Shown one piece after another: positions 919 to 63,394 of a DNA stretch of 64,000 nucleotides (its first letter is position 1; every line of letters begins with the position of its first letter). Source of the stretch: Bryoerythrophyllum caledonicum (lineage: Eukaryota; Streptophyta; Bryopsida; Pottiales; Pottiaceae); assembly GCA_963971425.1 (NCBI GenBank), contig OZ020519.1, forward strand, positions 10,990,028-11,054,027. Direction: 5' to 3'. The translations under genes were made by a program, and so were the position numbers. The notes beneath the pieces were generated by a model. That model had not been told where the DNA came from. It did no database searches and was given only the letters and a program-made list of their open reading frames with translations.

Positions 919-1734
919 TTAACCCCTAAAGGACCGATGTCCCCTCGGGGGACGTTTTGAGTTTGGGTAAGGTACCACGTTCTCAATTCTAGGCATTATT
1001 TTCTGAGATTTTTTATTGAATAGACAACTTTTGATTAGCTTTGCGTAGACACAAATTTCGTAGAATTCCGACTTACGGTTCAAAAGTTACAATTTATTTT
1101 CACTTACATATACAAATAGTGCAGCAGTTTAGTGTGACATATCACAAATATTGTCACCAAACTTTAATAACTTCTAAATTCAATAGAAACTCGAGTTTTT
1201 GTCCATTTAAAAGAAATAAAATGTCCTCTTGGAAAGGCAATTGAGATATTTGCATCTACCGTACGGATTTGTGAATTTCAAATATTTGAGAAGGATATGA
1301 TATATGCAAAATACAAAGTGTATTGTTGATTCTCAGCACATAGTTGCATTGCAGGATTTTTTAGGACATCTTCTACACCTCTTCTATTTCTAAAATTTGG
1401 TGCACATGTGCCTAACATGATCCTTTTCAAGTTAACACAATAAATTCACGGCCCGTAGTGCAAAAAGTTGCCATAGAAGGTGGTCGAAGTTTGTTGAAGG
1501 TGTATAGTATGACCTGAAAATGAGATTATGTCGCACTTCAAAGGCTAATATCTTTCAATCCGTGGGGTCAAACTTACGAAAATTTTCACCACACACTCTC
1601 ATACAAGTCTAGTACAAGATCTTACGGTTAAATTTTCAAAAAAATGATTTTGTATCATTTTGTGTTGATTGCGCTGAAAATGGCAGTTTTGGAGTGTTTT
1701 TGAGGAAAAATTGCCTTGGTCCTTTAGGGGTTAA
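919..1734 (-). mobile_element. Family A-related TTAA element, diverged, complete ends
   Basis: The element is bounded by TTAACCCCTAAAGGACC on the left and its near-perfect complement GGTCCTTTAGGGGTTAA on the right. TTAA is present on both sides. The right inner part ('cttacggttaaatttt', 'ggagtgtttttga') shows it is a diverged reverse copy of family A, about 816 bp long. There is no coding capacity. Terminal CCC(C)T next to TTAA is the arrangement known for piggyBac-type elements; assigning it to that superfamily is inference. Confidence 0.75.
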
Positions 1735-1989
1735 TTAAAAAAAACAAAATAATCCTCATTCACTTGTGTAATTAGCATTGCATCATAATTATTTCAAATC
1801 TCTTTTGTTGTAGGATTTGCTTGAATGGGCGAAACGCTTTGCTGCACCTAACAGATTCTAGACAAATGCAAATAAACAAGGGAACAATTAGACCCAATTA
1901 AAGGAATATATGTTTTTGTGTTCTACTTAATACATTACTTCATGTAGAAGCAATACATCCTCAATGATATTTGGTGTACGCATAGTTTA

Positions 1990-2529
1990 GGGCCGCTTCA
2001 CACTTGATGGCCTAGTCGAGAGGCCGTCGATTTCCACCAATGAGATTGTTAGAATGGCCAAAGTCCGGACTTTGGGCCTTCACACTTGTGCCCAAACTCC
2101 AAAGGCCGTCGTCCTACATGGCAACACTTTTGGGTTGTTTTGGCGCCAAAGCGACAGCCTCTCAAGCAAAACTAGGGTCGCCCATTTTGGTCGACCCAAA
2201 CTACAATCGAGAGTCCATCGATTTTTTTTATTAAAATAAAAAAAAAAATTGACAAGATCTAGACCGTTAGATGAAAGAGACCGAATTTTTGGGCTGGTTT
2301 TTTTGGCTGATTTTGATTGGCTGATTTTTTTGGGCTGATTTTTTTTGGCGTAATGATATGGGGTTTGGACTTTGGACTTGGCCTTTGGGGCTTCACACCA
2401 CGACCGGCCAAACCTTCAATCTATATTATTTAATGTATTTTTTTGGCAAAAAAGTTTGGCCTCTCGCCATAGGTAGGCCACTCATTTTGATGATCGGCCT
2501 CTCGACTTGGGCATAGTGTGAAGCGGCCC
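1990..2529. mobile_element. Family D MITE (PIF/Harbinger-like), copy 1
   Basis: Terminal inverted repeats are GGGCCGCTTCACACTtGAT and its mirror ending AGTGTGAAGCGGCCC. Flanks are TTA on the left and TAA on the right, close to the 3-bp TNA target duplication of PIF/Harbinger elements. The interior holds a run of 'ggctgatttttt' repeats at 2280-2350. It is about 540 bp and non-coding. The two other copies in the window have exact 3-bp duplications. Confidence 0.8.
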
Positions 2530-2540
2530 TAATTACAAAC

Positions 2541-5746: not shown

Positions 5747-6541
5747 TTAACCCTTTAGCGCCCAGGAAGCCCGAAATGGGACTCCAAAGGTGCTCAAACT
5801 CAATTTGCATGAAATCCATGAGGAACTAGGCTTTGAGATACAATGTTCAGATTTGCGCACTCATTACACAAACACTCTCCAACAATCAGATCATGATTTG
5901 GATTTGTAGAACTCTTGGAAAAGCTAGGAATACAACACAAAATACACCAAATACATTAAAATACAGTGAATACAGTGAATACTATGCCACATACTATGTT
6001 GTATTTCACACACATGCACATTGATTTTGGTCTTAAATTTTGATTGAACTTGGTCTTTAAGACATTCTTCATTGTTTTGTGATTGTTGATCTCTCACATA
6101 GGAAACTTCCGTTTTGATTCGTATAAGGTTGGAACATTTTTGTATAAATATCAAGTAGAAAAAAACAAAAAAATCACCAAGAATTGGGTATAAATATTTT
6201 CTTCACATATAATATGTCAATGCGAAGCTATCAACCTAGTGCACATGTGAACCGCTCTAATTCAAAGTAAAAAAATTCTTGCAAGACTCTATTGATAGTT
6301 AAAGTAGTACACCTTCCAAATTCCACAGTTTTCACTACCAATATACGGTAACTTTAAACACTATAATCTATTCCATCAACGGTTGGATGTTGTGCAAAAT
6401 TTCCCCAAAGTTGAGATCATTCAATTTTGTAAGGTTAGATATTAATATTAGTCATTGTATTTCCATCAATTCCGGTTCAAAGAAAAAAATCAGCAGAAAT
6501 CTTGGTTTTTCCAGAAACATCCCTGGGCGCTAAAGGGTTAA
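5747..6541 (+). mobile_element. Family B TTAA element, intact
   Basis: Ends are TTAACCCTTTAGCGCCCAGG and CCTGGGCGCTAAAGGGTTAA, perfect 20-bp inverted complements including the TTAA. Length is 795 bp with no ORF of note. The same family recurs at 29,322-31,112 and 62,614-63,394. TTAA plus a terminus beginning CCCT is what piggyBac elements show; the transposase source is not in this window. Confidence 0.85.
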
Positions 6542-6735
6542 TCCAAAGGGTTGAGACATCGACGTTGCAAATCATCGTCCAAATTTGGCATACTTTGTAC
6601 CAATGGTGGTTCTTACAAAGACCAACCCACAGGAAAAATGTCCACCTTCAAATTTTAATTTTTAAAAAAAGAAAAAAGAAAAGAAAAAAAGAGTCCACCT
6701 TAGAAAAAATTAATTCCGATGACAAGCATGTACTG

Positions 6736-8050
6736 TACAGTACCCACCAATAAGTATACGTTCATGAACGTTTCCACACTACATTGCTGCCAACTTTGAC
6801 ACCCTCCTGAGGGCTAAAAAAATGTCATTTTACCATGAAATTTTTGGCACAAGATCATTTCTATGTTGACAACATGTGTGCCAAATTTCAAGGCCAGAAG
6901 ATGAATATAGAAAAAGATATACCAAATTTACCAACATGTGTAGTTGTAAGCCATTCACTACTGCCAATTTTGACACCCTCTTGAGGGCTGAAAAATTGAT
7001 ATTTTACCATGAAATTTTTATCAAAAGATCATCTCTATGCTCATAACATGTGTGTTAAATTTCAAAGCCATGTGATGAATACAATAATAGATACACAAGA
7101 TTGTTTCTCATAGTTACACATGTTGGTAGATTTTGAATATGGGTTTCTTTATTCATCTTCTGGCCTTGAAAATTGGCGCACATGTTATATTCATAGAAGT
7201 GATCATGTGTTAAAAATTTCATAGTAAAATAACAATTTTTCAAACCTAGGGAAGGTGCCAAAGTTGAAATGGTACCCTTGGTTGTTTGTCACAATTAGCA
7301 CATTGGTAGATTTTGAATTTTTTCTTTTCTATCGTGGATATTTTAGACTTGAAATTAAGCACACATGTAATCAACATAGAGATGGTCTCATGTCCAAAAT
7401 CTCATGGGAAAAAAATATAGAACTCAATCCATGGGAGGGTGTCAAATTTGGCAAGAGTGAAATGTTTCTCACAACTACACATGTTGGTAGATTTCAATTT
7501 TTTTTTGCTATGTAGGTATTCTCGCCTTAAAACTTGGCACACATGTATTCGATATAGAAATGGTTTCATGCCAAAAATTTCATGCGCAAAAACAAAAGAG
7601 TTAATCCTTGGGAGTGTGTCAAAGTTGGCCAGGAGTGAAATGTTTCTTACAACTACACTCACAACTACACATGTTGCTAGATTTTAAATATGTCTCTTTG
7701 TGTGGATGTTTTAGACTTTAAACATGTAATAAACAGAGAGGCCGTCCCATGCCAAAAATTACATGGGCAAAAACAAAAAAATTCAATCCTTGGGAGGGTG
7801 TCAAAGTTCGTAGCTATGAAACTTTTCTTAGTGCTACCCATGTTGGTAGATCTTGAATATCTTTTTTTTAATTCAACTTCCGACCTTGAAATTTTGCACA
7901 CATGTTGTCAACGTAGAAACAATCTTGTGCCAAAAATTTCATGGTGAAATGACAATTTTTCAGCCTTTAAAAGGGTGTCAAAGTTGGCAGCAGTGTAGAG
8001 TGGAAACGTACGTATGCAAAATGAACGTATACTTATTGGTGGGTACTGTA
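6736..8050 (+). mobile_element. Fold-back element, copy 1 (2 forward + 5 reverse modules)
   Basis: Outer ends are TACAGTACCCACCAATAAGT and its exact complement at 8031-8050, followed inward by 'acgtttccacactac' and 'cagtgtagagtggaaacgt'. The interior is made of modules of about 180 bp marked by 'ctttgacaccct' and 'caacatgtgtagttgt'. Two modules run forward (6,791 and 6,971) and five in reverse (near 7,257, 7,437, 7,617, 7,797 and 7,976), with the switch at about 7,100 in 'attgtttctcatagtta'. The ORFs here are chance products of the modules. CATG flanks both sides but the target duplication is ambiguous. Confidence 0.8.
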
Positions 8051-8368
8051 CATGATTCAAAAGTTTGGAAATTTTAGAAGTAGATTGCATATGTAGTTTG
8101 TGGGTTGGAGATGTTCAGATTTTTCAGCCTTGCAAGTCTGAAAGAGAAAGACATGGTGAGATTTTTTGTGGACCGAAGTAGAGTATTTTGCGTTCCATGC
8201 TCCCTTATCCTATACCATTGAAATGCACCAATTAGTAGTAATGGCAATCAATGCTCATGGATTCTACCCAATGCAAGCTAAAGTTCTCCCATAGTACTCC
8301 AAGTTCCCAAAGAGTTAATAAGGTTGGATTACCTATCACCACCACCAACCCCAGAATCAACAGTCTTA
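8051..8368. other. Short spacer, nothing recognised
   Basis: No coding or repeat structure is seen between the fold-back element and the family H MITE. Confidence 0.5.
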
Positions 8369-9904: not shown

Positions 9905-10830
9905 CACCAAACACTAAGTATAGTGTGGACCAAATTATTTCAAAATACCTACACTAATTCTAGTACATGCAAATTATAGTGGTCCACCTCAATTCTCAAT
10001 CTACATCAAATCATGTTTCTTGGAAAATAGTGTGGAATGTTTCAAAATTGTTGACAAAAAATTAATGTGGATTATGGAGAGGTGGCAGCAAGCAACAAAG
10101 AGTGGAAAATATTTGGTAGTGAGTGGCGGTGAGGGCCGCTTCACACTTGGTGGCCAAGTCGAGTGGCCGTCGATTTCCACCAATGAGATTGCTAGAATGG
10201 CCAAAGTCCGCTTTGGGCCTTCACACTTGTGCCTAAATTCCGAAGGCCGTTGTCTTACATGGCAATACTTTTGGGCTCTTTTGGCGCCAAAGCGATGGCC
10301 TCTCGAGCAAAACTTGGGTCGCCCATTATAGCAGATCCAAACTAAAATCGAAAGTCCATCAAATTTTTTAAATAAAATATTAAAAAACTGACAAGATCTG
10401 GACCGTTAAATGAAAGAGGCCAAATTTTTTAGCTGATTTTTTTTGGCTGATTTTTTTGGGCTGATTTTTTGGGCTGATATTTTTCGGTTGATTTTTATTG
10501 GCTGATTTTTTTTGGTGTATTGACATGAGGTTTGGACTTTGGACTTGGCCTTTGGGGCTTCACACCACGACCGGCCAAACCTTCAATCTATATTATTTAA
10601 TGTATTTTTAGGCAAAAGAATTTGGCCTCTCGCCATAGTTTGGCCACTCATTTCGACGGAAGGTCACTCGACTTGGGCATAGTGTGAAGCGGCACTGAGG
10701 TGGCGAAGAATGGCATGACACATGTTGAAATGTGTCCACATCAATTGTATACTAGAACCAAAATTGATGTGGTCCACATCATTTTCCACCCACATTATCA
10801 ATGAATCCACACTATGTTCAATGCTTGGTG
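9905..10830. mobile_element. Family K inverted-repeat element with TA flanks
   Basis: Ends are CACCAAACACTAAGTATAGT and the mirrored ACTATGTTCAATGCTTGGTG, followed inward by 'gtgga' and 'tccac'. TA is present on both outer sides, as in Tc1/mariner-type (Stowaway-like) MITEs. It contains the family D element at 10,133-10,695. Confidence 0.55.
10133..10695. mobile_element. Family D MITE, copy 2
   Basis: Ends are GGGCCGCTTCACACTtGGT and AGTGTGAAGCGGCAC, flanked by the direct duplication TGA (10130-10132 and 10696-10698). It shares the 'ggctgatttttt' array and the block 'ggacttggcctttggggctt' with copy 1. TGA fits the TNA consensus of PIF/Harbinger elements. Confidence 0.85.
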
Positions 10831-11810: not shown

Positions 11811-12751
11811 TTAATCCCTAAATCTCTTTGACAATTTCACACCAAAAACACTTCAAAACTGCTTGTTTTAGTGCAATGACTAAGGACAAAACAAAAAAAA
11901 CATTACTTCTAGTTTTAACCATAGGATCTCAATTAAGACTTATTAAGTAATTTACAATTAAAAATTCATAAAGTTTGACCACAAGGATTGTAATATTATA
12001 GTGTTTGAAGTAGTGAAAGGGTCCATTGTCTTCCATGCGTTTAGTGGATCAGCAAACTTTGACTTCACTTGGTGTCAAATTTTTGCACTACACAAGGTCT
12101 AAAGTCATTACCATCATGTTAAGCATGATATTAGCTCCTTGTACTCCAATTTTTAGAGGTAGACAAAGGATGTAGAATATTCAAAAAAATTGTGGAAGGA
12201 GTGGAGGTTCAAAAAGTGTCAATGTGCGTTATAACTTTTTGTGAATTTAGTATGTTTTAGAATGAGAATCTGAATGGTCAATAAGAAGGTTTACACCACA
12301 TAATGCTGCGGAAAAAATAAAAAGTAAAAAATATGATGATCTCGAAGTTTTATTTGAAAAAAAGATTTTTTTTGGTACCTTGCCCGACGATTCGCAATGA
12401 TGTATGAAAATGTTTGACTTGGATTTATATGCCTTTTCCCACTAAAGACAAGAGATTTTTTTAGAAAATATGAAAGGAAATAATATTATTAGCTTAAATA
12501 GATAATCTCACATTCAATAGAGTGTCCTAGCAAAAAGTTTTGGAGTTGCCCGCTCTTCCCATTTGAACTTCAAAACCACGTAACTTTTTCATTAAATGTT
12601 GGATTTACAAAAAAATTGGACTCACACAAAGATTTTAGTAATGTCCATGTACATTAAAAATATAAAAGAAAACTATTATAAAATGACACCATAGGAATCT
12701 GCCTGAACCTTCTAGAGTCCCCCGAGGGGACTCTTGGAAATTTAGGGTTAA
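11811..12751 (+). mobile_element. Family A TTAA element, forward
   Basis: It starts TTAATCCCTAAATCTC and ends AAATTTAGGGTTAA, with TTAA at both borders. The full set of family A motifs is present in order, from 'caccaaaaacacttcaaaactg' to 'cctagcaaaaagttttgga'. Length is 941 bp with no coding capacity. Confidence 0.85.
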
Positions 12752-13675: not shown

Positions 13676-13707
<32 letters not shown>

Positions 13708-20202: not shown

Positions 20203-21080
20203 TTAACCTTTAAATGATTAAAGTCCCAAGGTGGGCTTTTACAAAACTTGAGCACGTTCCCATGGTTGCAATTTATATTTACAATTCTTGAAATTTTGTA
20301 CAAAAGTACAAGAGAAGAAGTACATGGGAATATAATTTTTATTCTAGTTGGACCTATGGAAAAAAAAGTTAGGTCATCTCAAGAGAAACTTCTCGAGAGC
20401 AGGCATGTTGGGCAACTCTGAATTAATTTGCTAGAACATTCTATTACATGTGAGACTTTCAATACTAGCAAGTAAATTTACACACATTGTCACACATTGT
20501 CGGGCAAGGTACCAAAAAAACTTCTTTTGTTCCACATAAAACTTAAATATCTTGAATTTTTTTAAATTTTTAAATTTTCGACAACAATGTGTGTTGTAAA
20601 CCTTCATTTTGACCATTTGGATTATCATTCTAAAACATATCAAGTTCATAACAAAATAATATAACATGCATTGGCAAATTTTGAACCTCTAATCCTTGCA
20701 CAGTTGTTTTGAATATAATATACCCCTTTTCTACCTCTAAAAAACTCTGTTCATGGAGCTAATATCATGCTTAACATTATGGTGATGAATTTAGACCTTA
20801 TGTAGTGCAAAATTTGACTCCAAGTGAAGTCAAAGTCTATTGATCTACTCAATGTAGGGAAGAAATGAAATGTTTTTATACTTCAAACACTATAATTTTC
20901 CAATTTGTATGGTCAAGGTTTATGAAATTTTGTGAGCATGTTACTTTATTAGTCTTTATTGAGATCATACGGTTAAAATTAGAAATAATTTTAACTATTT
21001 CCTTCTTTACTCTTTGCACATAGAATTAATTGTTTTGAAGTATTTTTGGTGTGAAATCGTCAAGGTATTTTAGTAGTTTA
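20203..21080 (-). mobile_element. Family A TTAA element, reverse
   Basis: It starts TTAACCTTTAAATGATTAAAG and ends TTTTAGTAGTTTA, a decayed form of the terminus. Family motifs occur in reverse order, e.g. 'ggcaaggtaccaaaaaaactt' and 'gtcaaagtctattgatc'. It is about 878 bp and lies 25 bp from a forward copy, so the two make an inverted pair. Confidence 0.8.
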
Positions 21081-21579
21081 GACATTATGCATGTGATTTC
21101 AACACTTAACCCCTAAATTTCTTTGACAATTTAATACCAAAACACTTCAAAACTATTGATTTTAGTGCAATGAGTAAAAAAGAAAACCGCATTTTTAAAT
21201 TTCGAGTTTAATCCGTAGGATCTTAATAAAGACTAATTAAGCAACATACTCACAAAAATTCATAAACTTTGACCACTTGGATTGAAAGATTATAGTGTTT
21301 GAAGTAGTTTAAGCAGTTCATTTTTTTCCTTGCGTTGAAGGGACTTTGACTTCAATGATAATTTGGATTATCATTCTATGATAGACTTTGACTTCACTTG
21401 GTGTCAAATTTTGCACTACACAAGGTTTGAATACTATATCATCATGTCGATCATGGTATTAGTTCCTTGTACACCATTGTTTAGAGGTAGAGAAGGGGTG
21501 TAGCACATTCCAAATAATTGTGCAAGGAGAGGAGATTCCAAAAGTGCAAAATTCACAATTTGTTTTTTGGTATACTTAG

Positions 21580-22205
21580 GGGCGGTTTACACTACGGACC
21601 AAGAACTCGTCCCATGCACCTCTAAAATCTGTGATTGGCTCCATCAACTCGTCCTGGGATGACTTGGGTTTACACTACGAGGAAAAAAGAAAAGTGACCA
21701 AAGGATTTGAGGTCCTCAAAAGGCCTAGAAATAGGCCTAATGGATAATGTTGAAGGGTCCTCCAGATTTTGCGGTGAGAGAGGCAAAGAGGGTTCTCTCA
21801 TTGCTGAAATGAGGAGACCATGGGCCTGAAATGCCGTTTTATTATTTTTAAATTGATTTTTTTTTTTTAAATAAAAATTTTGGTTGGTTTTTTTGGAGGG
21901 GCCCAACGTTACTGTAGATACAATGGCGGCCACCCATTTTGTCTTTTTGGCTTGTTTTATTTTCATTGTTATTTTAGGCAATACTGCCCTTTTTAGGCAT
22001 TCATTAAAAAAATCAACATGCCCACTTTTTAGTACATGGTCATTCCTCCCGGTCCAAGTTCGGTTTACACTTAGTGAGAGGCCCAAGGGCTTTAAAAATT
22101 ACATTTTTCTGAAGTGTGACCATGGAAGTGTGACCATGAAGCGTGACCATGGAATTAATCCATTTTCCTTGGTCACGGCTCTTGGTTTATAGTGTAAACC
22201 GCCCC
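21580..22205 (+). mobile_element. Family E MITE (PIF/Harbinger-like), copy 1
   Basis: Ends are GGGGCGGTTTACACTACGG and the mirror AGTGTAAACCGCCCC. TTA is duplicated exactly (21577-21579 and 22206-22208). It is 626 bp. The interior repeats 'tttacactacgaggaaaa' and 'ttggttggtttttttgga'. The 102- and 138-codon ORFs overlap on opposite strands and have no domain. Confidence 0.85.
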
Positions 22206-22438
22206 TTATTATGTCATAGAAGGATAGTCCAAATGGTAAATAAGAAACTTTACACAACATGTAGTAGAAAAAACAAAAAAGTAAAAAAATGAAGATCCCT
22301 AAGTTATATGTGAATAAGAAGAATATTTTTGCCCAACTCCATGTGACAATGTGTGAAAATCTTTGATTTCGGATACAATGCACTGAAGACAAAAAAAATA
22401 TTTTTTGACAAAATGGAATGAAATAATATCACTTGCTA

Positions 22439-22657
22439 CACTAAAGATGACATTTAGTGTGAAGTGCTCAGTAAATGACTTGTAAATGCGATAAGTTTTT
22501 ACTCTTGATGGCAATTTTTACCAAGAGCACAACTCTCTATAGTATTCAAATAAGAGGATCATTATAAACATAGTTGGTAAAAATATTCACTTAAAGTAAA
22601 AACTTATCGCATTTAGAAGTCATTCACTGAGCATTACACTAAATGTCATCTGTAGTG
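22439..22657. mobile_element. Family F MITE, intact, TA target
   Basis: A 219-bp element nearly all inverted repeat. It starts CACTAAAGATGACATTTAGT and ends ACTAAATGTCATCTGTAGTG, with inner arms 'aaatgcgataagtttttac' and 'gtaaaaacttatcgcattt'. TA flanks both sides. Other family A copies read 'acttgctagtattgaaaat' at this place, which gives the empty site and confirms a 2-bp TA duplication. Confidence 0.9.
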
Positions 22658-22812
22658 TAGTATTGAAAATATCACATTTGATAAAGTGTCCTAAGAAAAG
22701 TATTTGGAGTTGTCCAAGGTGCATGCACTAGACAACTTTTTCTTCGCGTTAAGATGAGAATAAAAATTATACTCTCATGTACCTCTCGTCTTTCTTTCTC
22801 TCATGAATTGCA

Positions 22813-25857: not shown

Positions 25858-25860
25858 TTA

Positions 25861-29321: not shown

Positions 29322-29931
29322 TTAACCCGCAATCACTCAGGAAGCCCAAAGTGGGGCCCCGGAGGTGCTAAAACTCAATTTGCATGAAATCCATGAGGAA
29401 TTAGGCTTCAAGATGAGAGGTTCAGATTTGCGCACACATTACATGAACTCCCTCTAACAATCAGATCATGATTTGGATTTATATAACTCTTGGAAAAGCT
29501 CGGAATACAATATAGACTACACCAATACACTAAAATATAGTGAATACAGTGAATACCATGCCACATACTATGTTGTATTTCACACTCATGCACATCGATT
29601 TTGGTCTTAAATTCTAATTGAATTTCGTCTTTAAGACATTCTTCATTGTTTTGTGATCGTTGATCTCACCTCACATACAAAACTTCAGTTTCGATTCGTA
29701 TAAGGTTGGAACATTTTCGTATACAATCAAGTAGAAAAAAGCAAAAAAAAACATCAATAATTGTGTATAAATCTTTTCTTGACATATGATATGTCAATGC
29801 GAAGCTATCAACCTAGTGCACATGTGAACCACTCTTATTCAAAGGTAAAAAAATTCTTGCATGAATCTATTGATAGTTAAAGTAGAACACCATCCAAAAT
29901 CCACGGTTTTCACTACCAATATACGATAACT

Positions 29932-30749
29932 TTAACCCCTAAAGGACCACGACCACTTTCGCTCTAAAACCAGTCCAAAACTGTCACTGCCAAAAAGAGA
30001 CATGAAAATCACATTTTAAAGTGAATTTTGGATTTTCAACCGTAAGATCTTTAAATAGACTTCATTATGAACATGCCGTAATATTTTGGTTGCAATCCAC
30101 CGCACGGATTGATAGATTTTAGTGTTTGAAGTCAAAACAATGGTTCATTTTCTTCCCTGCGTTGAGTAGATCAGCAGACTTTGACTTCCTTTGTATCAAA
30201 TTTTTGCATTGTACTGTACAAGGTCAAAATCTTTTTCCATTGTCTTAAGCATGATGTTATTTCCCAACATGCCAATTTTTAGAGGTTAAAAAGGGGTGTA
30301 GCATATTAAAAACAAGTGTGCAAGGAGTGAAGGTTCAAAAATTGCCATTTCACATTTTGTTTTTTTGTGAACTACGTATGTATTTGAATGATAATCCAAA
30401 CGGTCAATAAGAAGGTTTTCACCACATATTGTTGTTGAAAAAATAAAAAGTGAAAAATATGAAGATCTTTAGGTTTTATGTAGAAAAGATGAATTTTTTT
30501 TCCCCCGTTGCCCAAAAATGTGTGAAAATGTTTGACTTGGAATAAAATGCCTTTTTACACTAAAGACAAGATTTTTTTTTGAAAATTTCCTAAGGAAATA
30601 TTCTTTATATGTGTGAAAAATTCTCAATGTCAATAGAAACTTCTGTCAAAATCTTTGGAGGTGCCCAGAGTCCCCACTTTTGGCTTTAAGTGGTACTAAC
30701 TTTCAAACCACAAATCCAATATATGTATATATATGTATATATATGTATA

Positions 30750-30795
<46 letters not shown>

Positions 30796-30918
30796 CGAAG
30801 CCCTTATCAGATCCTATCTAGAAAAATAAATTCAATTAAAAAGGATTTTTTTTCGAATTGTAGGTACATGCCCAAAATCCAAAATGACCCCGGGGGGAAG
30901 TTTGGTCCCTTAGGGGTA
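29932..30918 (+). mobile_element. Family A element nested in family B
   Basis: Left border is TTAACCCCTAAAGGACCACG and right border GGTCCCTTAGGGGTA. The intact B copy reads 'aactttaaacactataatc' at this point, and here the A element sits exactly after 'aacTTTAA' and before 'acactataatc'. The right TTAA is decayed to TA. The target site is therefore TTAA. Confidence 0.9.
30719..30792. repeat. TA-rich microsatellite
   Basis: Three to four 'atatgtatat' units followed by a pure (AT)n run, inside the nested family A element. The Tyr/Ile ORF over it is an artefact. Confidence 0.95.
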
Positions 30919-31112
30919 CACTATAATCTATCCCATCGAACCGTTGGATGTTGTGCAAAATTTCCCTAAAGTTTAGGTCATGGGTTAAGTTCAATTTTGT
31001 AAGGTTTGATGTTAATATTAGGCATTGAATTTCCATCATATCCAGTTCAAAGAATAAAAATCAGCAGGAATCTTGGTTTTTCCAGAAACAAGCCTGGGCG
31101 ATAAAGGGATAA

Positions 31113-32165: not shown

Positions 32166-32656
32166 TACCTTCTTGTTTTGAATACACTCCCTTATTTTCA
32201 CACGTTGTTCTCCAACAAATAACTCAACATCATATTGTAGTGGAATTGTGGCACATACCACATCATGGCTTCGTGAGAATATCCCATGTCCACTAGAAAG
32301 TTCCAAACAACATGATACTGATTGTGAAGGGGAAAAAAAGTGCGTTGCTAGGGGAGACTAAGTCAGGCAGTGTACATATGGAGGTGACTGAAAAATAAAT
32401 AAAAACGTAGGACACCCTTTGCATTCAAGAATACTGTTCAGTAAAAGGGAATGATGGCCATTGATGTGAGTGTCAAATACCCATTTTCATAAAGTAATGC
32501 ATAGCTACCCTTTGCAGTGGTCACTTTCCTACATAATTAATTCAAAATGGAGAGTGTTCAATTTTTTTGGAGAATATAATTTCTTTTGTCTGGGTGATTA
32601 CCCATGTAATGTCAAGGTGCTACCTGTATAATGCCTAGGTGATATCCATGTAATAT
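32166..32656. other. No gene or element recognised
   Basis: Nothing supportable. A short ORF shared with the end of family L has no domain. Confidence 0.5.
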
Positions 32657-33610
32657 TTAGTCCCTAAATGATAAAAATCTGGAGGGTGGGTTTTTGCAAA
32701 TGTGGGGCATGTTCCTGTAGTTGCAATTTATGTTTACAATTCTTGAATTTTTTTTCAAAGATGCAATAAGACAAGATGTGCATGCCAATATAACCTTTAT
32801 TCTCAGTGGACCTTTAGAAAAAATAGTTATGTCATCTTAAAGGAAAAATTGTTGAGTGCAGGAATGTTGGGCAACTCCAAAAACTTTTGCTATGACACTC
32901 TTTTAAACGTGGGATTTTCAATACTAGCAAGTAATATAGTTTCCTTTGAAACTGCCAAAAAATTATTCTTTTCTTTTTGTGAAAAATAGCATATTAACCC
33001 AAGTCAAACATTTTCACACATTGTCACACATTTTTGGGCAAGGTACCAAAAAAACTTCCTCTTTTTCACATAAAACTTTGAGATCTTCATATTTTTTTCT
33101 TTTTAATTTTTCCTAACAATATGTGGTGTAAACCTTCTAATTGACCGTTTGGATTATCATTCTAAAACCTATTAACTTCACAAAAAATAAAACGTGATTT
33201 GGTAATTTTTGAACCTCTACTTCTTCCACAATTTTTTTGAATATGCTACACCCCTTTTGTACCTCTAAAAATTGTTGTACAAGGAACTAATATCATGCTT
33301 GACACAATGGTAATGAATTTAGACCTTGTGTAATGCAAACATTTGACACCAACTAAAGTCAAAGCCTAGTGATCCACTCAACGCAAGGAAGGCAATGAAC
33401 CCTTTTCTCTTCTTCTGACACTATAATCTTTCAAACTCTACAGTCAAAGTTTACGAAATTTTGTGAGTATGTCACATAATAAGTCTTAATTGAGATCCCA
33501 CAGTTAAAACTAGAAAAACAAAAGAAGTTGTTTCCTTCCTTACTCAATGCACTAGAATCAACAATCTTGAAGTGTTTTTGTATGAAAGTGTCAAAAAAAC
33601 GTAGGAGTTA
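32657..33610 (-). mobile_element. Family A element, reverse
   Basis: The left end TTAGTCCCTAAATGAT and the right end GTAGGAGTTAGG are decayed forms of the family termini. Family A motifs run in reverse order throughout. It is about 954 bp. Confidence 0.8.
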
Positions 33611-34768
33611 GGTGACACCCAACTTGTCCAAGTCGCTGCATCAAAGAAAAATAATTCTTTCGACAGAGATGTGCCAAAAATGACCACTGAGAATTCACCA
33701 ACCTCAGGCATTCCGGTAGAATTCACCAATCTCGATCATATGCAGTTCTTACAACATACTTCAAAATATGACTGGAAGTGGATAATTCAACTCGATTGCA
33801 ACATGCGCAGATTTTTATGTTTAGTCCAACATGGATTAATAACTAAAGATCAAATTAGTTTTTAAAAGTGAAATACAGACTCAGTCAAATCACTTGTTGG
33901 ATTCACGGGTGGTGGAACAAATTTCCAAATTTCACGTAGTATACCTGATATAGTGGTAAAAAGTTTAGAGTAGATGTTGGTCTTAAGAGTAAATACAATT
34001 TTATGTGTAATTGTCTCCACATGCCAATGATAGCTCGTAACTTTTGCTGTATCATATTGCCGCATGTCACATGGGTGTTGTTGCCTTGAATCCCAATTCC
34101 AGGGTCAGGCATTGATGCACAGCCTGGAAAGAATGAATTTCAACAACCTCTTTTACACCGAAAAACAGTTACTTCTCCTATCTTCTATTTCACACTCGGC
34201 CAACTCACTACCAACTCTTATCAATTTCCATAATTGACCCTTTGTTAAATGTCCCTATCTCACATCATCACGTACAAGTGTAGACCCTCATCGTCCCCGT
34301 CAAAGCAAAGGCGCTGCAATCCCTCAAGACCCTTTCCTTGTGCAAATCCATGACTAGATGCGAGACCCTGTTTTTGGCACAATGTATTATCCCAATGTGA
34401 TACCCTGTCTCTAACCGATACCTTATCCGTAGATGATACCTGGCCCGGATGTGAGTCCATGTCCCCGCAGCAATATTTGAACTCAAGTAATTCATTTGAC
34501 TAAATTCATCCAACTGATTACATCATGGAATTGTCCCAGACTGCCCAACAAACAATAGATATAGAGAGAGGAAGAGAGAGATATTTCAACTCATAAATGT
34601 TCTACTGGTATAGATAGGGATGCTTTAACGATATTTGATTTTAATAAAACTGGAGTAGATGGGGCCAATCATTTATTCTATGTGTTGTTATACGATAAAA
34701 TTGTGGGCATTGTTTTACCAAGGTGTGAACATCGAAATTGGTGGCACATGTACAGTACCCGACAATAA
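33611..34768. other. No gene recognised
   Basis: Several 60-80 codon ORFs on both strands show no domain and no exon chain. The segment 34,350-34,460 is rich in 'gatacc' and 'gagacc' motifs but has no clear period. Confidence 0.5.
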
Positions 34769-35730: not shown

Positions 35731-35750
35731 TATATGTTCTTTTTGCTTAG

Positions 35751-40340: not shown

Positions 40341-40654
40341 ATACAGTGGCAAGCACAAGTAATCGGACAAAGAGGCATCTCTCATAAATATGCCCACTGT
40401 AGCATAATTAATGAGTTCGTAAGATATTTTTTGGGATTGCTTTAGTCAACACACCATATGGCACCTTATTAACATTGACTCCTTTAGAATTTGACACTTG
40501 TAGAGATTATACATGCAAAGATCATGAAGAGGTGCGTACGACTTATTATGCTCACAAGTTGTGCACACCATAATCTTCTCATTACATATCCATTGTAAAG
40601 CTTTTTGTTGTGAATTTTTTTTGTAAGATTTGGAGAGGCCCTTGGAGAGTAGCC

Positions 40655-41680: not shown

Positions 41681-41693
41681 CGCTTGTGAGTGG

Positions 41694-42625
41694 TTAACCC
41701 CTAAAAGACAATTGTCCCAAAACGGGTTTTTTGAGAATTTGGGCAGGTTCCTATGATGTCAATTTTAGATATATTTTATTGAATTTTTTTTTGAAGGTGT
41801 GGTAATGTTAGAGCTTCATGGGGATCTAATTTATTCATCATTTGGACATTGGAAAAAAAAGATATGATGCCCAAAGTAAAAATTCCTACTCGTCGGGCAC
41901 CTCGGGCAACATAGCAAAAACACTCCATTATTTATGATTTTTTTTTTACAAGAAGCTAATATTATACTATTCGGTGATTTTGAAAAAAAACTACTTTTGG
42001 AATTTTTGTCTTTTTTTAAAAGAGAATCAAAGTTCTCACACCTTTTCGGGCAAGGTGCCAAAAAAAATTCTTCTTTGCCATATAAAAGATAGAGATTTTG
42101 TTTTTTTGTACTTTTAATTTTTTCTACTTTGAAAAGGAGTATGAAACTTCGATTTCACCGTTTGGATTTTGAATTTTCAAGATCCACAATTTACAAAAAA
42201 ATAAAATGCAAATAAGCAAGTTTTAAATCCCTTCTACTTGCAATACTAATTTGAGAATGCTACACACTATTATTTCATTTGAAATTTGGGGAAAGTATAG
42301 CTTATATGGTCTATTTTTATTTGGTAAAATCTCCTCAAAAGAAAAGATGCAAGAGATATTTTTTCATGAGGAAACATAGTGTGCTGATCCTGTTTTGAAT
42401 GGTCCCAAAATGACTATGTTTTTCATTTCAAATACTATAATCTTCTAATTCATATGGTGAAAAAATTTGAGAAAATTACCACTTGTTTTTGTCATATTCT
42501 AAATTAAGATCTTACGGTTAAAAATAGTAATGGAAGATTTTTTTTACTCTTACCTTCTCGTTTACTAGAATATGTAGTTTTGAAGTGTTTTTGACAAGAA
42601 AATCGCAAAGAATTTTAGGGGTTAA
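41694..42625 (-). mobile_element. Family A element nested in the Tc1 element
   Basis: Borders TTAACCCCTAAAAGACAATT and AAAGAATTTTAGGGGTTAA, with TTAA on both sides. Reverse family order ('gaagtgtttttgacaagaaaatcgc' near the right end). It lies 14 bp after the transposase stop, inside the 3' region of the Tc1 element, so it inserted later. Confidence 0.88.
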
Positions 42626-42916
42626 GAGCTAAATCATTGAGTCATATAGTTATATTGTGACTTAATATATTGTTTTCTATAGCTGATACACAATAAAATG
42701 AATTTGTGCATAAAGAGTTGGACAAGCTTGTTGCACATATGAATTATTGTGTGTTTTTCTAGTTCATACTTTTATTGAAAACTATGTGTTTTATGCTTGT
42801 TGCATCTATATACTCTGATGGTTATATTCTTGCTATTTTATGACAATTCATGTGGATGTGGTAGCTAATTTTCTAAAGAAGCTTCTATTGTACGACTATT
42901 TATGCTTGCCACTGTA

Positions 42917-43300: not shown

Positions 43301-43560
43301 AGGCCACTTCACACTATGCCCAACTATCACGTAAACAAAGGATCCTAGTAATATGATTGGTAAACAGGAAATAAATGACTTTTCAACCTTCATGTTGGAG
43401 GCGAGTGGCCAACGGACATTGGGGGTCCAAAACGGTGATATGGGAGCACTTTACTATGATTTTGGCACCAAAGATTTGTTTGCTTGATAAGAAATTGGGT
43501 TGGCCAATACTGGAAAGCCCAACTTTTGGTCTAGAAGATGATAATTCAAACTACTTCCAA
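43301..43560 (+). repeat. Family D-related left end
   Basis: It starts AGGCCACTTCACACTATGCC after TAA, and includes 'ttttggcaccaaag' and 'gaaattgggttggcc' in the same order as family D ('ttttggcgccaaag', 'aaacttgggtcgccc'). The matching right end is uncertain; 'tcacactaatgtggcctTTA' at 45,365-45,384 is a weak candidate and would make a 2.1 kb element. Confidence 0.5.
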
Positions 43561-43619
43561 TTCTTGTATATAGAAGGGGAAATCAAACATATGTTTTATT
43601 TCAATTTGTAATTGTATGA

Positions 43620-44020
43620 ACTATATTTAGACCAAAAACTAACATGTTCACAAAATTTTGTAAATTTTGACGACACCAATTGAAACACTATGGTGTTCAA
43701 AGTGAATACAATGTTCTTTTATTTCATGACATCAAGTGGATTTGTTAACTTTGATGTGACTTGGTGTCAAAGTTGCATTACATAAGGTCCACATTTCACA
43801 CAAGGCTTCTTACTTGACCCTGAGGGTTCTCATTCTATAACATATTTTGTTGAAAAAATGAAAACTAAAATGATTCTATAGTCTCTATGGAAAAAATAAG
43901 CTTCGATGTGGAGAAGAAGAAGTTTTTTGACAACTTCTCTTACAATGTGTGAAATTATTCGAATTGCATTAAAGAGGAGTTTTAATAATCTTAAAGGTAA
44001 TACATTTTTGTACGGTCTAC
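43620..44020 (+). repeat. Family A fragment, forward
   Basis: It keeps 'acatgttcacaaaattttgtaaattttgac', 'gacttggtgtcaaagttgcattacataaggtc' and 'gaagaagaagttttttgacaacttctcttacaatgtgtg' in family order. Both termini are lost. Confidence 0.6.
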
Positions 44021-56378: not shown

Positions 56379-57333
56379 TTAACCCCTAAGGTACCAAGGC
56401 AGTTTTACACCAAAAACACTTCAAAATTAATGGATTCTAGTGCAATGAATAAAGAAGGTAACAAAAACTTTTATTTTTAGTTCTGACCGTAGGATCTCAA
56501 TAAAGGCTTATTAAGTAATACGTGTACAAAATTTCATAAACTTTGACCGCACGGATTGAAAGATTATAGTGTTTGAAGTCAAGCAAATGGTTCATTTTCT
56601 TCCCTGCGTTTAGTGGATCAGCAGACTTTGACTTCACTTGGCGTCAAAAAATTTCACTACACAAGGTCTAAATCTATTACCATCTTGTCAAGCATGATGT
56701 TAGCTCCTTACACACCAATTTTTAGAGGTAGAGACAGGGTGTAGCATATTCAAAACAAGTGTGCAAGGAGTGGAGGCTCAAAATTTGTTAATTCACACTT
56801 TAATTTTTTTTGAACTTAATATGTCTTTGATTGATAATCCGAATGGTTAATAAGAAGATTTACATTACATATTGTTGTGGAAAAAATAAAAAGTGAAAAA
56901 TATGAAGATCTCTAGGTTTTACGTGGAAAAGAAGAAGTTTTTTTGGTACCTTGCCCGACAATGAGTGACAATGTGTGAAAATGTTTGACTTGGGTTGGTA
57001 TGCTATTTTTCACTAAAGACAAGGACTTCTTTTTGACAACATGAAGGGAAATGATATTACTTGCGAGTACTGAAAATCTCACTTTCAATAGAGTGTCCTA
57101 TCAAAAGTTTTTGGAGGTGCCCGAGGTGCCCGCCCTCCCCATTTGAAATTAAAAACCCTATAACTTTATCATCAAATGTCCAATTTAGGAAAAAATTGTT
57201 TTCCCACTAAGGTCTTGGTAATGCCCTTCTATGGTAAGAATTTCAAAGATGAATGTTTGAAATTGACAGCACAGGAACCTGACCGAATTTTCAAAAAGCC
57301 CGTTTTGGACACTTGGTCCTTTAGGGGTTAACC
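56379..57333 (+). mobile_element. Family A element 1 of an abutting trio
   Basis: Borders TTAACCCCTAAGGTACCAAG and GGTCCTTTAGGGGTTAA. All family A motifs are in forward order. The right TTAA (57330-57333) is at the same time the left TTAA of the next element. Length is 955 bp. Confidence 0.9.
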
Positions 57334-58458
57334 CCTAAAAGCCCAAGGCATTTTCCCTCATGAAACACTCCAAAACTACCACCATCAACAAGTGGCAACA
57401 AAATCTAACATTAAAGTCTAATTATAGACTTTTAAACCATACAATCGTAAAATAGAAACGTATATGAACTTACAATACAAATTTGGTTGCAATCCACCGA
57501 ACGGATGTGAAGATTATAGCATTTGAAGTGCAAAGAAAAGTATTTTTCCCCCCTTGCCGGGCAAGGTCAGCCTACTTTGACTAGGCAAATCTTCTAGTCT
57601 TTACATTGAAATGTAATCAAATCTTTTACCAATATGACTTATATGTTGTTAGCTATTTGTGTGCAAAATTTGAGGTCATTCGAGGGGTAATAGATGTAGA
57701 AATATACACTTTAGTGAAAGGGGGTACAAAATGATGACAATTACTACATAAGTGATATGAAATTGTTTGTTTCATACAAGTTGTTGCATTTGAGAATCCC
57801 AATGGTGGAAACTTTCAATTTATTTTTTCACTAATTTTCAAATTTTATTTTATTTTTTCACTAATTTCACTAATCAACGACTAAAATTAGTAAAATCTAC
57901 AATTTTCATGAATATATTGCATAAATAAAGCATTGTGGGGAAGGGCAGTGCTTGAAATTGGGTGGCCAATTGTCCCGTTGTTGACCGCCCTCACAACTGG
58001 ACAAGAAAAAATTTAAAAAGTTTTTTTTTTGTTGGCGGGCCTATTTCTGGCGCGAGATGTAGGCAGGCCAGCTGACGGCTAGTTGTTTGCTGTTTTTTTA
58101 AAAAAATATTTTAACAACACTTTTAATAATTTTCAAAGCTTTTTCTACTTGGAATTCGTGCATAGAAGTCTAGACTCCTTTCCTCGCCCTTTCTGTCCCA
58201 AAATTCTGCCCCATTTTTCTCCTCAAATTGCATTGGTTGGCATGGCTGCCCCTATAGTCCAGACTCCCCATTTTGACCTTTGAAGGCTAATGACTTTTGA
58301 ACCAAAAGTCCAAAATCATATTTGAAAAATTCCCCATACAGATTTCATCAAGGACAGTGTCAAATTTTCATAAGAATCGGAGTATTTTTTCCACTCAAAG
58401 GTACATGCCCAAAATCCAAAACGTACGCCCCAAGTACACTTGGGCTATTAGGGGTTAA
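57330..58458 (+). mobile_element. Family A-related element 2 of the trio, diverged
   Basis: Borders TTAACCCCTAAAAGCCCAAG and GGGCTATTAGGGGTTAA. The start ('gaaacactccaaaactacc') resembles the diverged copy at 919-1734. Near 57,935-58,085 it contains a GC-richer insert ('ggtggccaattgtcccg', 'cgggcctatttctggcgc'). Length is 1129 bp. Confidence 0.8.
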
Positions 58459-59381
58459 CCCCTACATGACCAAATCCCTTAGCGGAGACGTTTTTGATTT
58501 TAGGCAAATATCTAAAATTCGAGAAAATAATCTTTTTCTTGAAATTTTTATGTTCTAGATTGTCCATGATGAGAGCTTTGTGGAGGTGTTTTTATCATTT
58601 TTTTTGGATTCATGGTTTGAAAGTTAGTACCACTCAAAATTTGAAATCGGGACTCCGCGCAACTCCATAATTCTGCTAGAAGTTTCTATTGACATTGGGA
58701 TTTTTCATATATGTAGAGAACATTAGTTTCTTTGAAAATGTCCAAAAAAAATTCTTGTCTTCAGTGCAAATTTCTTTAAAAAACTAAAGTCAAACATTTT
58801 TACACATTTCTTGCAAGCAAGGAAAAAAACTTCATCTTTTCTACATAACTTCATATCTTTCATTTTTTTATTTTTTCAACAACAACATGTGGTGGAAACC
58901 TTCTTATTGACCGTTTGGACTATCATTCTAAAACATATTGAGTTCACAAAAAAATAAAACGTGAATTGGCAATTTTGAACCTCCACTCCTTGCAGACTTG
59001 TTTTGAATATGCTACACCCCGTCTCTACCTTTAAAAATTGGTGGACACGGAATTAACATCATGCTTAACACAATGGTAAAAGATTCAGACCTTGTGTAGT
59101 GCAAAAATTTGATACCAAGTGAAGCCAAAGTTTACTGATCCATTGATTGGAGGGATGAAAATGAACCATTTGCTTGACTTCAAACACTATAATCTTTCAA
59201 TCCATGGTGTCAAAGTTTTTGAAATTTTGTGAGTATACGACTTAGTAAGACTTATTTGAGATCCTACAGATTTGTAGTTTAAATAAATAAACGGTTATGT
59301 TTTCTTCCTTACTCATTGCACTAGAATCAACAATTTTGAAGTGTTTTTGGTGTAAAATTGTCACTCTCTTTTAGGGGTTAA
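58455..59381 (-). mobile_element. Family A element 3 of the trio, reverse
   Basis: Borders TTAACCCCTACATGACCAAA and CTCTTTTAGGGGTTAA. Family order is reversed ('gaagtgtttttggtgtaaaattgtc' near the right end). It shares its left TTAA with element 2. Length is 927 bp. Confidence 0.88.
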
Positions 59382-59850
59382 GACTAATCAATTAACATAC
59401 TTACAAGATTTCATCAACTTTGACCGCATACATAGACATATTTTAGTGTTTGATGTAGATAAAGTGGTTCATTTCCTTCCTTGCATTGAGGGGATCACCA
59501 AACTTTGACTTCACTTGGTTTTAAATTTTTGCACTACGCAAGGTCTAAATTTTACACCATCATATTGATCATGATAGTGCTTCCTTGTACATCAATTTTT
59601 AAATAAAGAAAAGGATGTATCATATTCAAAAACAATTGTGCAAGGAGTGGAGGTTCAAAAAGTGCCAATTCATGTTTTGTTTATCGTGAACTTAATATGT
59701 TTTTATATTGTAATCCAAATGGTCAATGAAAAGGTCTACACCACAACTTGTCATAGAAAAAAATTTAAGTAAAAAAAATATGAAGATCTTGCCCGCACTT
59801 AAGAAGTTTTTCTTTGATATAGCATAACTTTTGGTCCATAGATCCAATGA
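59382..59850 (+). repeat. Family A fragment, forward, both ends lost
   Basis: It starts in the part 'ttacaagatttcatcaactttgacc', continues through 'gtgtatcatattcaaaaacaattgtgcaaggagtggagg', and fades after 'cataacttttggtcc'. A short (AC)n/(AT)n tract follows at 59,852-59,872. Confidence 0.75.
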
Positions 59851-62337
59851 AAACACACACACATATATATATCGTTTTTGGGTCACTTCATGCACCATTT
59901 CATGCATTTACCGTATTCATGCGCCATGCCATGCATACTCAACTAATTGGAATTGGGTGGCCAATCGGAATTGAGTGCCTCTACCTTAGTTAACCTCTAC
60001 TAGGTAGAAAAATTTGAATGATGGAAAGTTTGAAAAGCCAAATCTTCAACATCTTATGTGCAGTTTCCATCAAATTTATTACATTATTTATCAATTTGGC
60101 TCCAGCTTTGATGAGAAGAATCTTACCTCCATTAGAATAGTGTGTAGGTTTGGAAAAAAATTCATAAAGAAATTTGAATGTAAAATTTGTTTCGTCTGTA
60201 AGACATGGTCCAATTTCTGACATTACAAGACCATTACGGAGACTTGGATGTTTCAGTTTTTTTTTTTTTTAAAGATTAAAAACTATTAACAATGTACTTT
60301 GAGACGATGTTGAAATCTTTTTCGTCAAGATCATCTAATTGGTTACGAGTAACATTTGAACTTCAATGTACCATTAAATTATTAGTCCTTATAATTTATT
60401 TTTTCATAAATGAGCGTTTCTAAATCAATCTAAATTAAAATCACAAGTAATTAGTAATTAAAATCAATCTTAAAAAAGATGTGATGGTAATTTAAACTAA
60501 ATTTTCTTATGATCTAAAATAAAAACTCACAAGTTAGGATAAGGAACTAACCGCAATGATGGTGACTAAAAGATGTCTTTAGGAGATGCTCCTTGATGCT
60601 AGTTCCAAAACTTCCCTTGTATGAAATTATGAATGAAGCTTGTCATACTTTATCCAACCTCTCTTGCAGCACTTTTCTTTTGTAGATGCTCTTTATTTGA
60701 TTTAGGATTGTTGCACCAACCTGAACATCTAGATATATGTCTTGCAAACTGAGCATAATGTTTGGCTTATGCCTGACCAATATGTGTCAAGATAATTCCC
60801 ATTTGAATAAGACATTGGAATGGGCTTTAGATTCCTCAAATAAAAGGCTCATGAGAGCCTCCTAATAAGTTTCATCTTAGATAACAATTGATTACCAATT
60901 ATCTAAGATTGTAATAATAAGTTGGTATTCTTCAAAACACTATAGTATACAAAATATCAAAGTCTAAAACAATTTCCATTCAGAGACTTAAAGGTGAATT
61001 TGAACAACTTCACAACATTACCCAGGGTAGCTAAATTGTCCAAATTCCTACCCTTGTGATTGAAACTTCTTGCTTGTAAATGTGAAGCCTCACACATGCA
61101 GGAGCATACTTGTGAGTATCTAAATCTGTTCCACTGCTGTTGTATCTATTTATTTCAATTACTTCAATCACTTACTCCAAACAATCATTTACGCATTGTG
61201 TTGTACACAAACACATTGTGCAAAGATAACATTGTGCCACTAGGTGAGAGCGTATAAATAGAGACAAATTCGGAGCGACGGTGACTAAACCATCACTGTT
61301 GCCTTTGTAAACAACAACAATAATAGTTTACAGAAGAAACTATCAACCACTTAGCAACTTAGGCTAGGGGAAAAGATATAAACACCTAGACCACAAAGTT
61401 TAGTAATTGGTCTACAAGGACCTCTTTACTAACAAATAAGCAAAACTCGCTTATGCCACTAAACAAGTCAAGTCCATGCCATTCTTGAAGAATGATAGCA
61501 TGATTACGATGCGGCTAATGGTGTGCAAACACACCCTCACCCCATCACGTGAAAGACTCAATTTGATAAAGATGAGTCTCCCTCAACCAAACGTGGAGGT
61601 CATTTAGTCTCAAAGACCCACATGAGGTGTCAAAAGACACCATCGTTGACCTAGCCATTACCCGGCACTATTCCTAACCCTAATCAATAACTAGGGCTAG
61701 GTCTTAAGCCTTCCGGTAACCCCACAACTTCCTAGGTGGTTTCTAACCCAAAACCAACTACACAAACTCCTCAGTGCGCCAATCTGACAATTGTTGATGA
61801 GAATTATGCATGCATAATTTTTTTGAATAATATCCCATGTCATTTGCATCTCCAAGCATATGCAACACTATCCCTTGGATACATCAGCTCGTTGTACGAA
61901 CATGGCATAAGGGAGAATATGTACAATTTTTAATTTTTAATTTAAAAAATGACACATTATTATGAATTACTGAAGCAGATTGTTATAGACCTTTGTAGTC
62001 GTTAGTATCACTTTGTTTCCATACTTATATCATCTATCAACCACTTGCCACCATTTTGATAATGAATTGATCTAAAGTAGAGTATGTGGTTAATGGATTA
62101 GGAATTAAGCCTTAAAAGACACGACTGTTCTTATGGAAAAAGAACTTCAAAACTATCATTAAAACCAATATAACACACTTACGAATCATTGTTTCATTCC
62201 ACTTCTTGACCATCGCATCTTTTTATGTACTTTGATAAGAACATATCAAATTTTAAATATGATTTTTGTTTGCATAGTTTGGAAGGTTCATATTTATTAT
62301 AAGTCCTTTGTATACTAAACAATTTATATATTACAGG
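59851..62337. other. AT-rich DNA, no gene recognised
   Basis: Short ORFs only. No inverted ends or domains noted. 59,948-59,970 shares 'attgggtggccaat' with the insert in the second trio element. Confidence 0.5.
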
Positions 62338-62613
62338 GTTTAAGGCCTAATGTTCATTTTTGGGTTGTTTGGGCATCTTAACCCCATAGAAAGCGCTACA
62401 TGCAACCTCCCTCAAATTTTGAATTGTGACTAAACATCAGAGCCAGATGAAGCATCTACTAGGACCGGCGCCACCAAATTTGATGCAAACACTGACAAGT
62501 TACACTAATTTCCGTGAGGTGAGGTTGTATTGAAATGTATCCGCTCTATGGATGATCTTATTCATAATCAATTGCGGAGTAAAATTCTCCCAAGCGTTGT
62601 GAGCTCATTACCC
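62338..62613 (+). repeat. Family C left fragment
   Basis: Closely matches 4,477-4,757: 'tttaaggcctaa', 'ggttgtttgggca', 'gcatctactaggacc', 'gtgaggtgaggttg' and 'attctcccaagc(g/c)ttgtgag'. It stops where family B begins; C sequence does not obviously resume on the other side. Confidence 0.7.
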
Positions 62614-63394
62614 TTAATCCTTTAGTGCCCAGGTCATGTTTCTCCAAAACCAAGACATGTGCTCATTTTTCTCAAAACTAGCTTTGATGGAAATAAAATG
62701 CCAAATTTTAGTATTCAACCTTATAAAATTGAACTCAAAGCATGACCTGAACTTTGGAGAAAATTTGCACAACATCCAAAGGTTGATAGAATAGATTACA
62801 GTGTTTAAAATTACCGTATATTGGTAATCAAAATTGTGGCCTTTGGAGGGTATGCTACATTATCCATCAATTGATTTTTGCAAGTTTTTTTTACTTTGAA
62901 TGAATGAGGTTTGCATGTGCACTAGGTTGATAGCTTTGCTTTGACATATCATATGTGAAGAAAATATAAATGATTTTTTTACTTTTGCCTGCTTGATTGT
63001 ATACGAAAATATTCCAAACTTATACAAAATAAAAGGAAGGTTATTATTTGATGAGAGAGATCAACGATCACAAAACAATGAAGAATCTCTTAAAGTCAAA
63101 TTTCAATAAAAATTTAAGAGCAAAATCATTTTGCATGTGTATGAAATACAACGTAGTATGCACCATGTTATTCATTGTATTTTAGTGTATTTGATGCGTT
63201 TAGTGTTGTATTCCTAGCTTTTCCATGAGCTCTATAGCTCCAAATCATGATTTGGTTTTTGTAGAGTGTTCACGTAATGTGTGCGCAAATCTGAACTTCA
63301 AATTTCACAATCTTATTCTTCATGAATTTCATGCAAATTGAGTTTTAACACCTCTGGAGTCCCATTTTGGGTCTTGTGGGCATTAAAGGGTTAA
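62614..63394 (-). mobile_element. Family B element, copy 3, reverse, in family C
   Basis: Borders TTAATCCTTTAGTGCCCAGG and TGGGCATTAAAGGGTTAA, with TTAA on both sides. It is the reverse of the intact copy over its whole length ('gcaaatctgaacttc', 'catgaatttcatgcaaattgag'). Length is 781 bp. The related family C sequence at 4,757 reads 'gacctTTAAggatt', a TTAA at the insertion position. Confidence 0.85.

What the first reader, a model, noticed from the sequence alone, without database searches (positions are those of the whole stretch)
919..63394. Abundant TTAA-bordered, CCCT-ended non-coding elements (families A, B, C): candidate piggyBac-like MITEs in a plant genome
At least nine A copies with one or both termini, three B copies and two C copies have termini TTAA-CCC(C)TAAAGG or TTAA-CCCTTTAG. 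TTAA target plus CCC/CCCT termini is the known signature of piggyBac, a superfamily not usual in land plants. None of the copies encodes a transposase, so a source element should exist elsewhere in the genome. The A copies are diverse enough to suggest long activity.
Basis: partly seen in the sequence, partly recalled or inferred. Interest (0 to 1): 0.8.

Follow-up and report, generated by a model that had tools for sequence, protein, structure and literature searches.

The report
piggyBac transposon family in a plant
The repeated non-coding elements are transposase-less relatives of piggyBac, a cut-and-paste jumping gene best known from animals, and the same genome, apparently a plant's, carries piggyBac elements with open transposase frames and matching ends.

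Summary
By my grouping of self-BLAST rows the window has 13 family-A stretches and three B copies; of 11 copies checked, six A and two B keep TTAA at both ends. Three nested insertions with paralogous empty sites show TTAA is the target. The window's genome (437 Mb) holds at least 120 matches to piggyBac transposase DDE_Tnp_1_7, best E 6e-81. One lineage forms 6.5-kb elements with an 813-aa frame and TTAA-CCCCTAAA ends; its left 190-299 bp and right 123-216 bp are colinear with the ends of 8 and 7 of 9 A copies. So A elements are non-autonomous relatives of it. Twenty of 20 chosen young copies lie between TTAAs; 28 of 40 termini not chosen for TTAA have it. B shares a terminal motif with another piggyBac lineage here; its source was not found. 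That the host is a plant rests on one STICHEL-like gene; its lineage is unsettled. The kind is known; abundance, open frames and several lineages in a plant are the interest.

The parts
919..1734 (-). A copy, 816 bp, TTAA at both ends
11811..12751 (+). A copy, 941 bp, TTAA at both ends; carries TTAA at two inner sites where relatives hold insertions
20203..21083 (-). A copy with one decayed end
21106..22768 (+). A copy split by another element at 21578-22206
29932..30917 (+). A copy inserted at TTAA inside a B copy; right TTAA lost (three bases missing)
32640..33613 (-). A copy with decayed ends
41694..42625 (-). A copy, 932 bp; its right end equals the autonomous right end over the first 29 bases
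43541..44009 (.). A fragment
56379..57331 (+). A copy, 953 bp, member of a young subfamily (the best 40 genome matches, itself included, are 97-100% identical)
57328..58458 (+). A-like copy, 1131 bp, abutting its neighbours with one shared TTAA on each side; left end A-like, right end only weakly
58455..59381 (-). A copy, 927 bp, third of the end-to-end stack
59378..59811 (+). right part of an outer A copy that holds the stack 56379-59381; its left part lies left of 56379
1..877 (.). two A pieces: the end of one at 1-174 abutting the interior of another at 168-877
5747..6541 (+). B copy, 795 bp, TTAA-CCCTTTAGCGCCCAGG at both ends; empty-site reference
29322..31112 (+). B copy split by the A copy 29932-30917
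62614..63394 (-). B copy, 781 bp, second empty-site reference

Best explanation
A and B are non-autonomous piggyBac elements. A copies keep the terminal regions of a 6.5-kb autonomous piggyBac lineage in the same genome but lack its gene, and are moved in trans by the transposase of that lineage or a close relative of it. Insertion is cut-and-paste at TTAA, which is duplicated. Shown: shared ends and terminal colinearity, TTAA target, a transposase with conserved Asp residues in the source lineage, near-identical dispersed copies. Inferred: trans-mobilisation, seamless excision, and recent or continuing activity. B is moved by a related lineage with CCCTTAAAYGCC ends (inferred from about 16-20 terminal bases).
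For: Genome search: 120 DDE_Tnp_1_7 matches. Three loci share a left boundary, within one base, at TTAACCCCTAAAGTTCC and two others a right boundary exactly at TTAACCCCTAAAAGACAATTG. Two complete elements of 6,555 and 6,476 bp, each with 200 N and counted with both TTAAs. Left 190-299 bp of the autonomous element align with 8 of the 9 A copies given, seven from base 1 and one from base 3 with base 6, 58-64% identity; right 123-216 bp align with 7 of 9, 62-75%. Beyond base 14, in all 8 copies tested, left scores better with left and right with right than the cross pairs. Transposase: solved relatives piggyBac 6x67 (E 1.4e-28) and piggyBat 9c0f (E 1.5e-24). D1 in the 19 of 21 frames that cover it, D2 in 21 of 21; D3 was the motif by which frames were picked. 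Nested sites. Genome samples.
Against: Terminal identity of A copies to the sampled autonomous element is only 58-75%; left ends of two copies (41694-42625, 56379-57331) lie under 2 sd above shuffles. The right end gave no BLAST match in 57328-58458 and 58455-59381, and the left none in 32640-33613. B is not clearly alike beyond about 20 bases. 12 of 40 unselected termini lack exact TTAA; 9 of the 12 differ by one base. At the nested sites some paralogues do not read TTAA. No excision or transposition was observed.
Confidence: 0.94

Rival explanations
1. The elements belong to another TTAA-targeting superfamily (Kolobok or Sola3, recalled) and only look like piggyBac at the termini.
For: TTAA targets are also used by Kolobok and Sola3 (recalled). 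Their transposases were not searched for.
Against: Elements with the same two ends and colinear termini encode a DDE_Tnp_1_7 transposase.
Confidence: 0.03
2. PIF/Harbinger-like MITEs with a TTA target, misread as TTAA.
For: The window does have elements with GGGG...CCCC ends beside TTA, such as 21578-22206.
Against: Nested sites restore one full TTAA with flanks intact; 20 of 20 chosen young copies have TTAA on both sides; elements with the same ends encode piggyBac transposase.
Confidence: 0.01
3. A refinement inside the best explanation rather than an alternative to it: the direct source of most A copies is a piggyBac lineage not sampled here, and the sampled 6.5-kb lineage is a cousin.
For: Terminal identity is 58-75%. 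A segment inside the autonomous element is 93.6% identical to the interior of A 56379-57331, while the ends are much less alike.
Against: A copy 41694-42625 equals the sampled right end over 29 bases and matches it at 75% over 216 bp.
Confidence: 0.4

Closest known systems
piggyBac / piggyBac-like elements (PLE)
   Same: TTAA target duplicated, CCC(C/T) termini, DDE_Tnp_1_7 transposase with conserved Asp, C-terminal CxxC motifs; these traits are named for PB and PLE in a passage of PMC10954464
   Different: Host apparently a plant; the 21 unbroken frames run from 319 to 983 aa against 594 aa for the solved piggyBac chain; copies of the sampled autonomous lineage carry A-type inserts
piggyBac-related MITEs of animals, such as those of corals (PMC2872659, search listing only; traits recalled)
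   Same: Non-coding, repeated, TTAA-bordered
   Different: A copies here are 816-1131 bp and keep distinct left and right terminal regions
PiggyBac entries in plant repeat tables, e.g. Ceratopteris richardii (PMC6890710, one passage)
   Same: Same superfamily label in a plant; the row reads 1230, 122417, 0.00, which I take as copies, bases and percent
   Different: A table row; no element anatomy or transposase in the passage read

Membership tests
piggyBac superfamily | TTAA target, duplicated on insertion | tested here: met
   Three nested insertions with empty-site relatives; 20 of 20 chosen young copies; 28 of 40 unselected termini
piggyBac superfamily | Short inverted termini beginning CCC | tested here: met
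   A: CCCCTAAA; B: CCCTTTAGCGCCCAGG; autonomous: CCCCTAAA and CCCTTAA
piggyBac superfamily | Transposase DDE_Tnp_1_7 with DDD triad in a source element with the same ends | tested here: met
   (elsewhere in the genome; none detected in the window)
piggyBac superfamily | C-terminal cysteine-rich domain | tested here: met
   20 of 21 frames have at least two CxxC in the last 120 residues, one has one; a motif count only
piggyBac superfamily (family A as derivative) | Terminal regions colinear with an autonomous element | tested here: met
   Left in 8 of 9 copies, right in 7 of 9
piggyBac superfamily (family B as derivative) | Terminal regions colinear with an autonomous element | tested here: inconclusive
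   About 16-20 terminal bases shared with L040/L022; bases 12-71 of all six B ends score above their shuffled mean with the L040 end, but no spread was computed
piggyBac superfamily | Seamless excision and trans-mobilisation | not testable with these tools
   Needs a transposition assay
MITE | Short (usually under about 600-800 bp, recalled), high copy, non-coding | tested here: inconclusive
   High copy for A and no piggyBac coding detected, but unsplit copies are 781-1131 bp

The most novel reading that the evidence does not exclude
A land plant in which piggyBac is a major DNA transposon: several diverged lineages with open transposase frames coexist and drive thousands of non-autonomous copies, some only a few percent diverged, with insertions stacked end to end at the TTAA of older copies.
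Probability: 0.5. Interest if true: 0.65.

Novelty: new member of a known kind. Interest (0 to 1): 0.52.

Why it matters
piggyBac is known mainly from animals, fungi and some protists (recalled). A plant genome with open transposase frames, matching ends, diverged lineages and near-identical copies would make the history of piggyBac in plants testable, might yield a plant-adapted TTAA-specific transposase, and explains a visible share of this window's repeats.

Tried and rejected
Harbinger-type reading of A and B (TTA target): rejected by the nested sites. TTAA as part of the element instead of the target: rejected, because relatives without the insertion hold one TTAA at the site. Window-encoded source: none detected. 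A as a simple deletion of the sampled autonomous copy: not supported, since a segment 93.6% like the interior of A 56379-57331 lies inside that element without its ends, while the ends are less alike. Chance repeats: rejected. The alignment had one stretch (1-900) in the wrong orientation and its output was cut; nothing here rests on it.

Not obtained: genome counts of TTAACCCCTAAAGGACCAAG and of the abutting junction TTAGGGGTTAACCCCTAA, and a LEAFY (PF01698) search to place the host (asked, never answered); a genome search with B and a tree against animal piggyBac sequences (not asked).

Literature: nine searches of an open-access library. Titles and abstract starts were seen for the listed papers only (20 of 93, 1 of 2, all in the others). 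None of these showed an autonomous piggyBac element described in a land plant. Against novelty: the abstract passage of PMC10813416 says that piggyBac has been isolated from plants among others, PMC6890710 has a PiggyBac row in a fern repeat table, and PMC10794571 lists PiggyBac among superfamilies in plants. Passages were also seen in PMC10619864 (only the word piggybacking), PMC10954464, PMC4309413 and PMC8101967; two papers asked for were not held. Most subscription papers are missing from that library.

Full report
Observation. The window holds far more TTAACCC than chance gives: 25 against 9.6. The longer termini allowing two mismatches are only mildly enriched. CCCCTAA is preceded by TTAA in 12 of 21 places, where TTAA density is 0.62%. 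Self-BLAST rows, grouped by me, give 13 A stretches and three B copies. Of 11 copies whose ends were checked, six A and two B keep TTAA on both sides.

TTAA is the target, not part of the element. Three nested insertions have relatives of the host repeat without the insertion. (1) A copy 29932-30917 sits in a B copy; the two other B copies read TTTAAACACT there. The right TTAA of this insertion has lost three bases, so its duplication is inferred. (2) The stack 56379-59381 sits in an A copy. The joined flanks read GGATCTCCATTAAGACT; of five other A copies aligned, two read GGATCTCAATTAAGACT and three do not have TTAA at that place. (3) An autonomous element on contig C3 sits in an A copy; window copy 11811-12751 reads ATCATGCTTAACATGA, which equals the two flanks joined at one TTAA. 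Copy 58455-59381 also has TTAA there, copy 32640-33613 has TTGA.

Source. The window belongs to a 437-Mb genome. PF13843 (DDE_Tnp_1_7) gave 120 matches, with 116 of 305 candidates scored, best E 6.2e-81; many carry stops. None of 14 control genomes rang, but I do not know what those are. Of 30 loci fetched, 21 have an unbroken frame of at least 300 aa that holds the third-Asp motif, by which frames were picked; D2 is present in 21 and D1 in the 19 that cover it. Catalytic cores are 38 to 100% identical to three reference frames, so several lineages coexist. Solved relatives are piggyBac 6x67 and piggyBat 9c0f.

Ends of the autonomous elements. Copies stop being alike, within one base, at TTAACCCCTAAAGTTCC (three loci) and exactly at TTAACCCCTAAAAGACAATTG (two other loci). 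Two complete elements are 6,555 and 6,476 bp, each with a 200-base gap of N, TTAA on both sides. Other lineages have TTAACCCTTAA ends: one from L039:219 to 5280, one from L043:2474 to 6433, and a right end at which L040 and L022 stop being alike.

Link to A. Beyond the shared 14 bases, in eight A copies the left end scores better with the autonomous left end and the right end with the right, never the cross pair; the left ends of two copies are under 2 sd above shuffles. BLAST gives colinear left termini for 8 of 9 copies and right termini for 7 of 9. The autonomous element also carries a segment 93.6% like the interior of A 56379-57331, and a nested TTAA-CCCCTAAAG element of 887 bp present in all four loci read over that stretch. 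This nesting leaves open which lineage feeds which A subfamily.

Abundance and age. A 56379-57331 drew 6,070 candidates; only the best 40 were scored, and these (itself included) are nearly full length at 97-100%. Of the 39 others, 20 full-length ones were checked at both junctions: all 20 have TTAA on both sides; flanks differ except for one pair that are reverse complements of each other. Since that query includes TTAA, a test not selected for it was made: CCCCTAAAGGACCAAG has 2,454 exact places, reversed control 0. Of the first 40 listed, 28 are preceded by TTAA; 9 of the other 12 differ by one base. By my reading of the printed rows it is 24 of 34 once repeated flanks are counted once.

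Stacking. Three A elements at 56379-59381 abut with a single TTAA between neighbours. Among the 40 unselected termini none directly abuts another CCCC end, one abuts what looks like a CCCTTTAA end, and two lie within about 12 bases of an old CCCC end. A preference for borders is not shown.

Family B. Its terminal motif CCCTTTAGCGCCCAGG resembles the L040 right end CCCTTAAACGCCCAGGG; further in, likeness is slight and untested for significance. I treat it as piggyBac-like by its ends and TTAA borders, source not found.

Host. A STICHEL-like gene (DnaX-type ATPase plus a sub-threshold hit to the STICHEL domain, 24.6 against a cut-off of 27 bits) lies at 14731-17559. That STICHEL is plant-specific is recalled. 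A LEAFY search to place the lineage did not complete. Transposase loci lie on chromosome-sized contigs as well as small ones, which speaks against contamination.

Known or new. The superfamily is known, and plants are named in print: an abstract passage says piggyBac was isolated from plants among others, a fern repeat table has a PiggyBac row, and a review lists it among plant superfamilies. In nine library searches I saw no listed paper describing autonomous piggyBac elements of a land plant, but I saw listings and passages only.

Noticed in passing
40574-41563: Open frame of 329 aa matching Tc1-type transposase (DDE_3, HTH_Tnp_Tc3_2), in a stretch of strong GC skew at 38-42 kb; no terminal inverted repeat was found in 39501-42700 at the setting used.
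   Followed up: partly
6733-8055 and 35731-37073: Two copies of a 1.3-kb family with many internal inverted and direct repeats; ends hold GGTGGGTACTGTAC-like sequence.
   Followed up: no
21578-22206 and 46452-47045: Two copies, 88% alike, with AGGG(G/A)CGGTT-type ends; the first is inserted in an A copy beside TTA. Looks Harbinger-like (recalled).
   Followed up: partly
1948-2530, 10090-10696, 25858-26420: Three copies of a family with GCTTCACAC-like ends and internal 14-base tandem repeats.
   Followed up: no
37714-38301: 195-aa open frame without Pfam match; its cysteine/histidine pattern recalls the tail of non-LTR retrotransposon proteins (recalled).
   Followed up: no
L081/L082 and L087/L088; L093-L095; L096, L098, L108; L110, L114: Some A copies share the same flanks, so they were probably multiplied inside another repeat or a segmental duplication.
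   Followed up: no
56379-59381: Three A elements end to end sharing single TTAAs, the whole stack inside a fourth A copy.
   Followed up: partly
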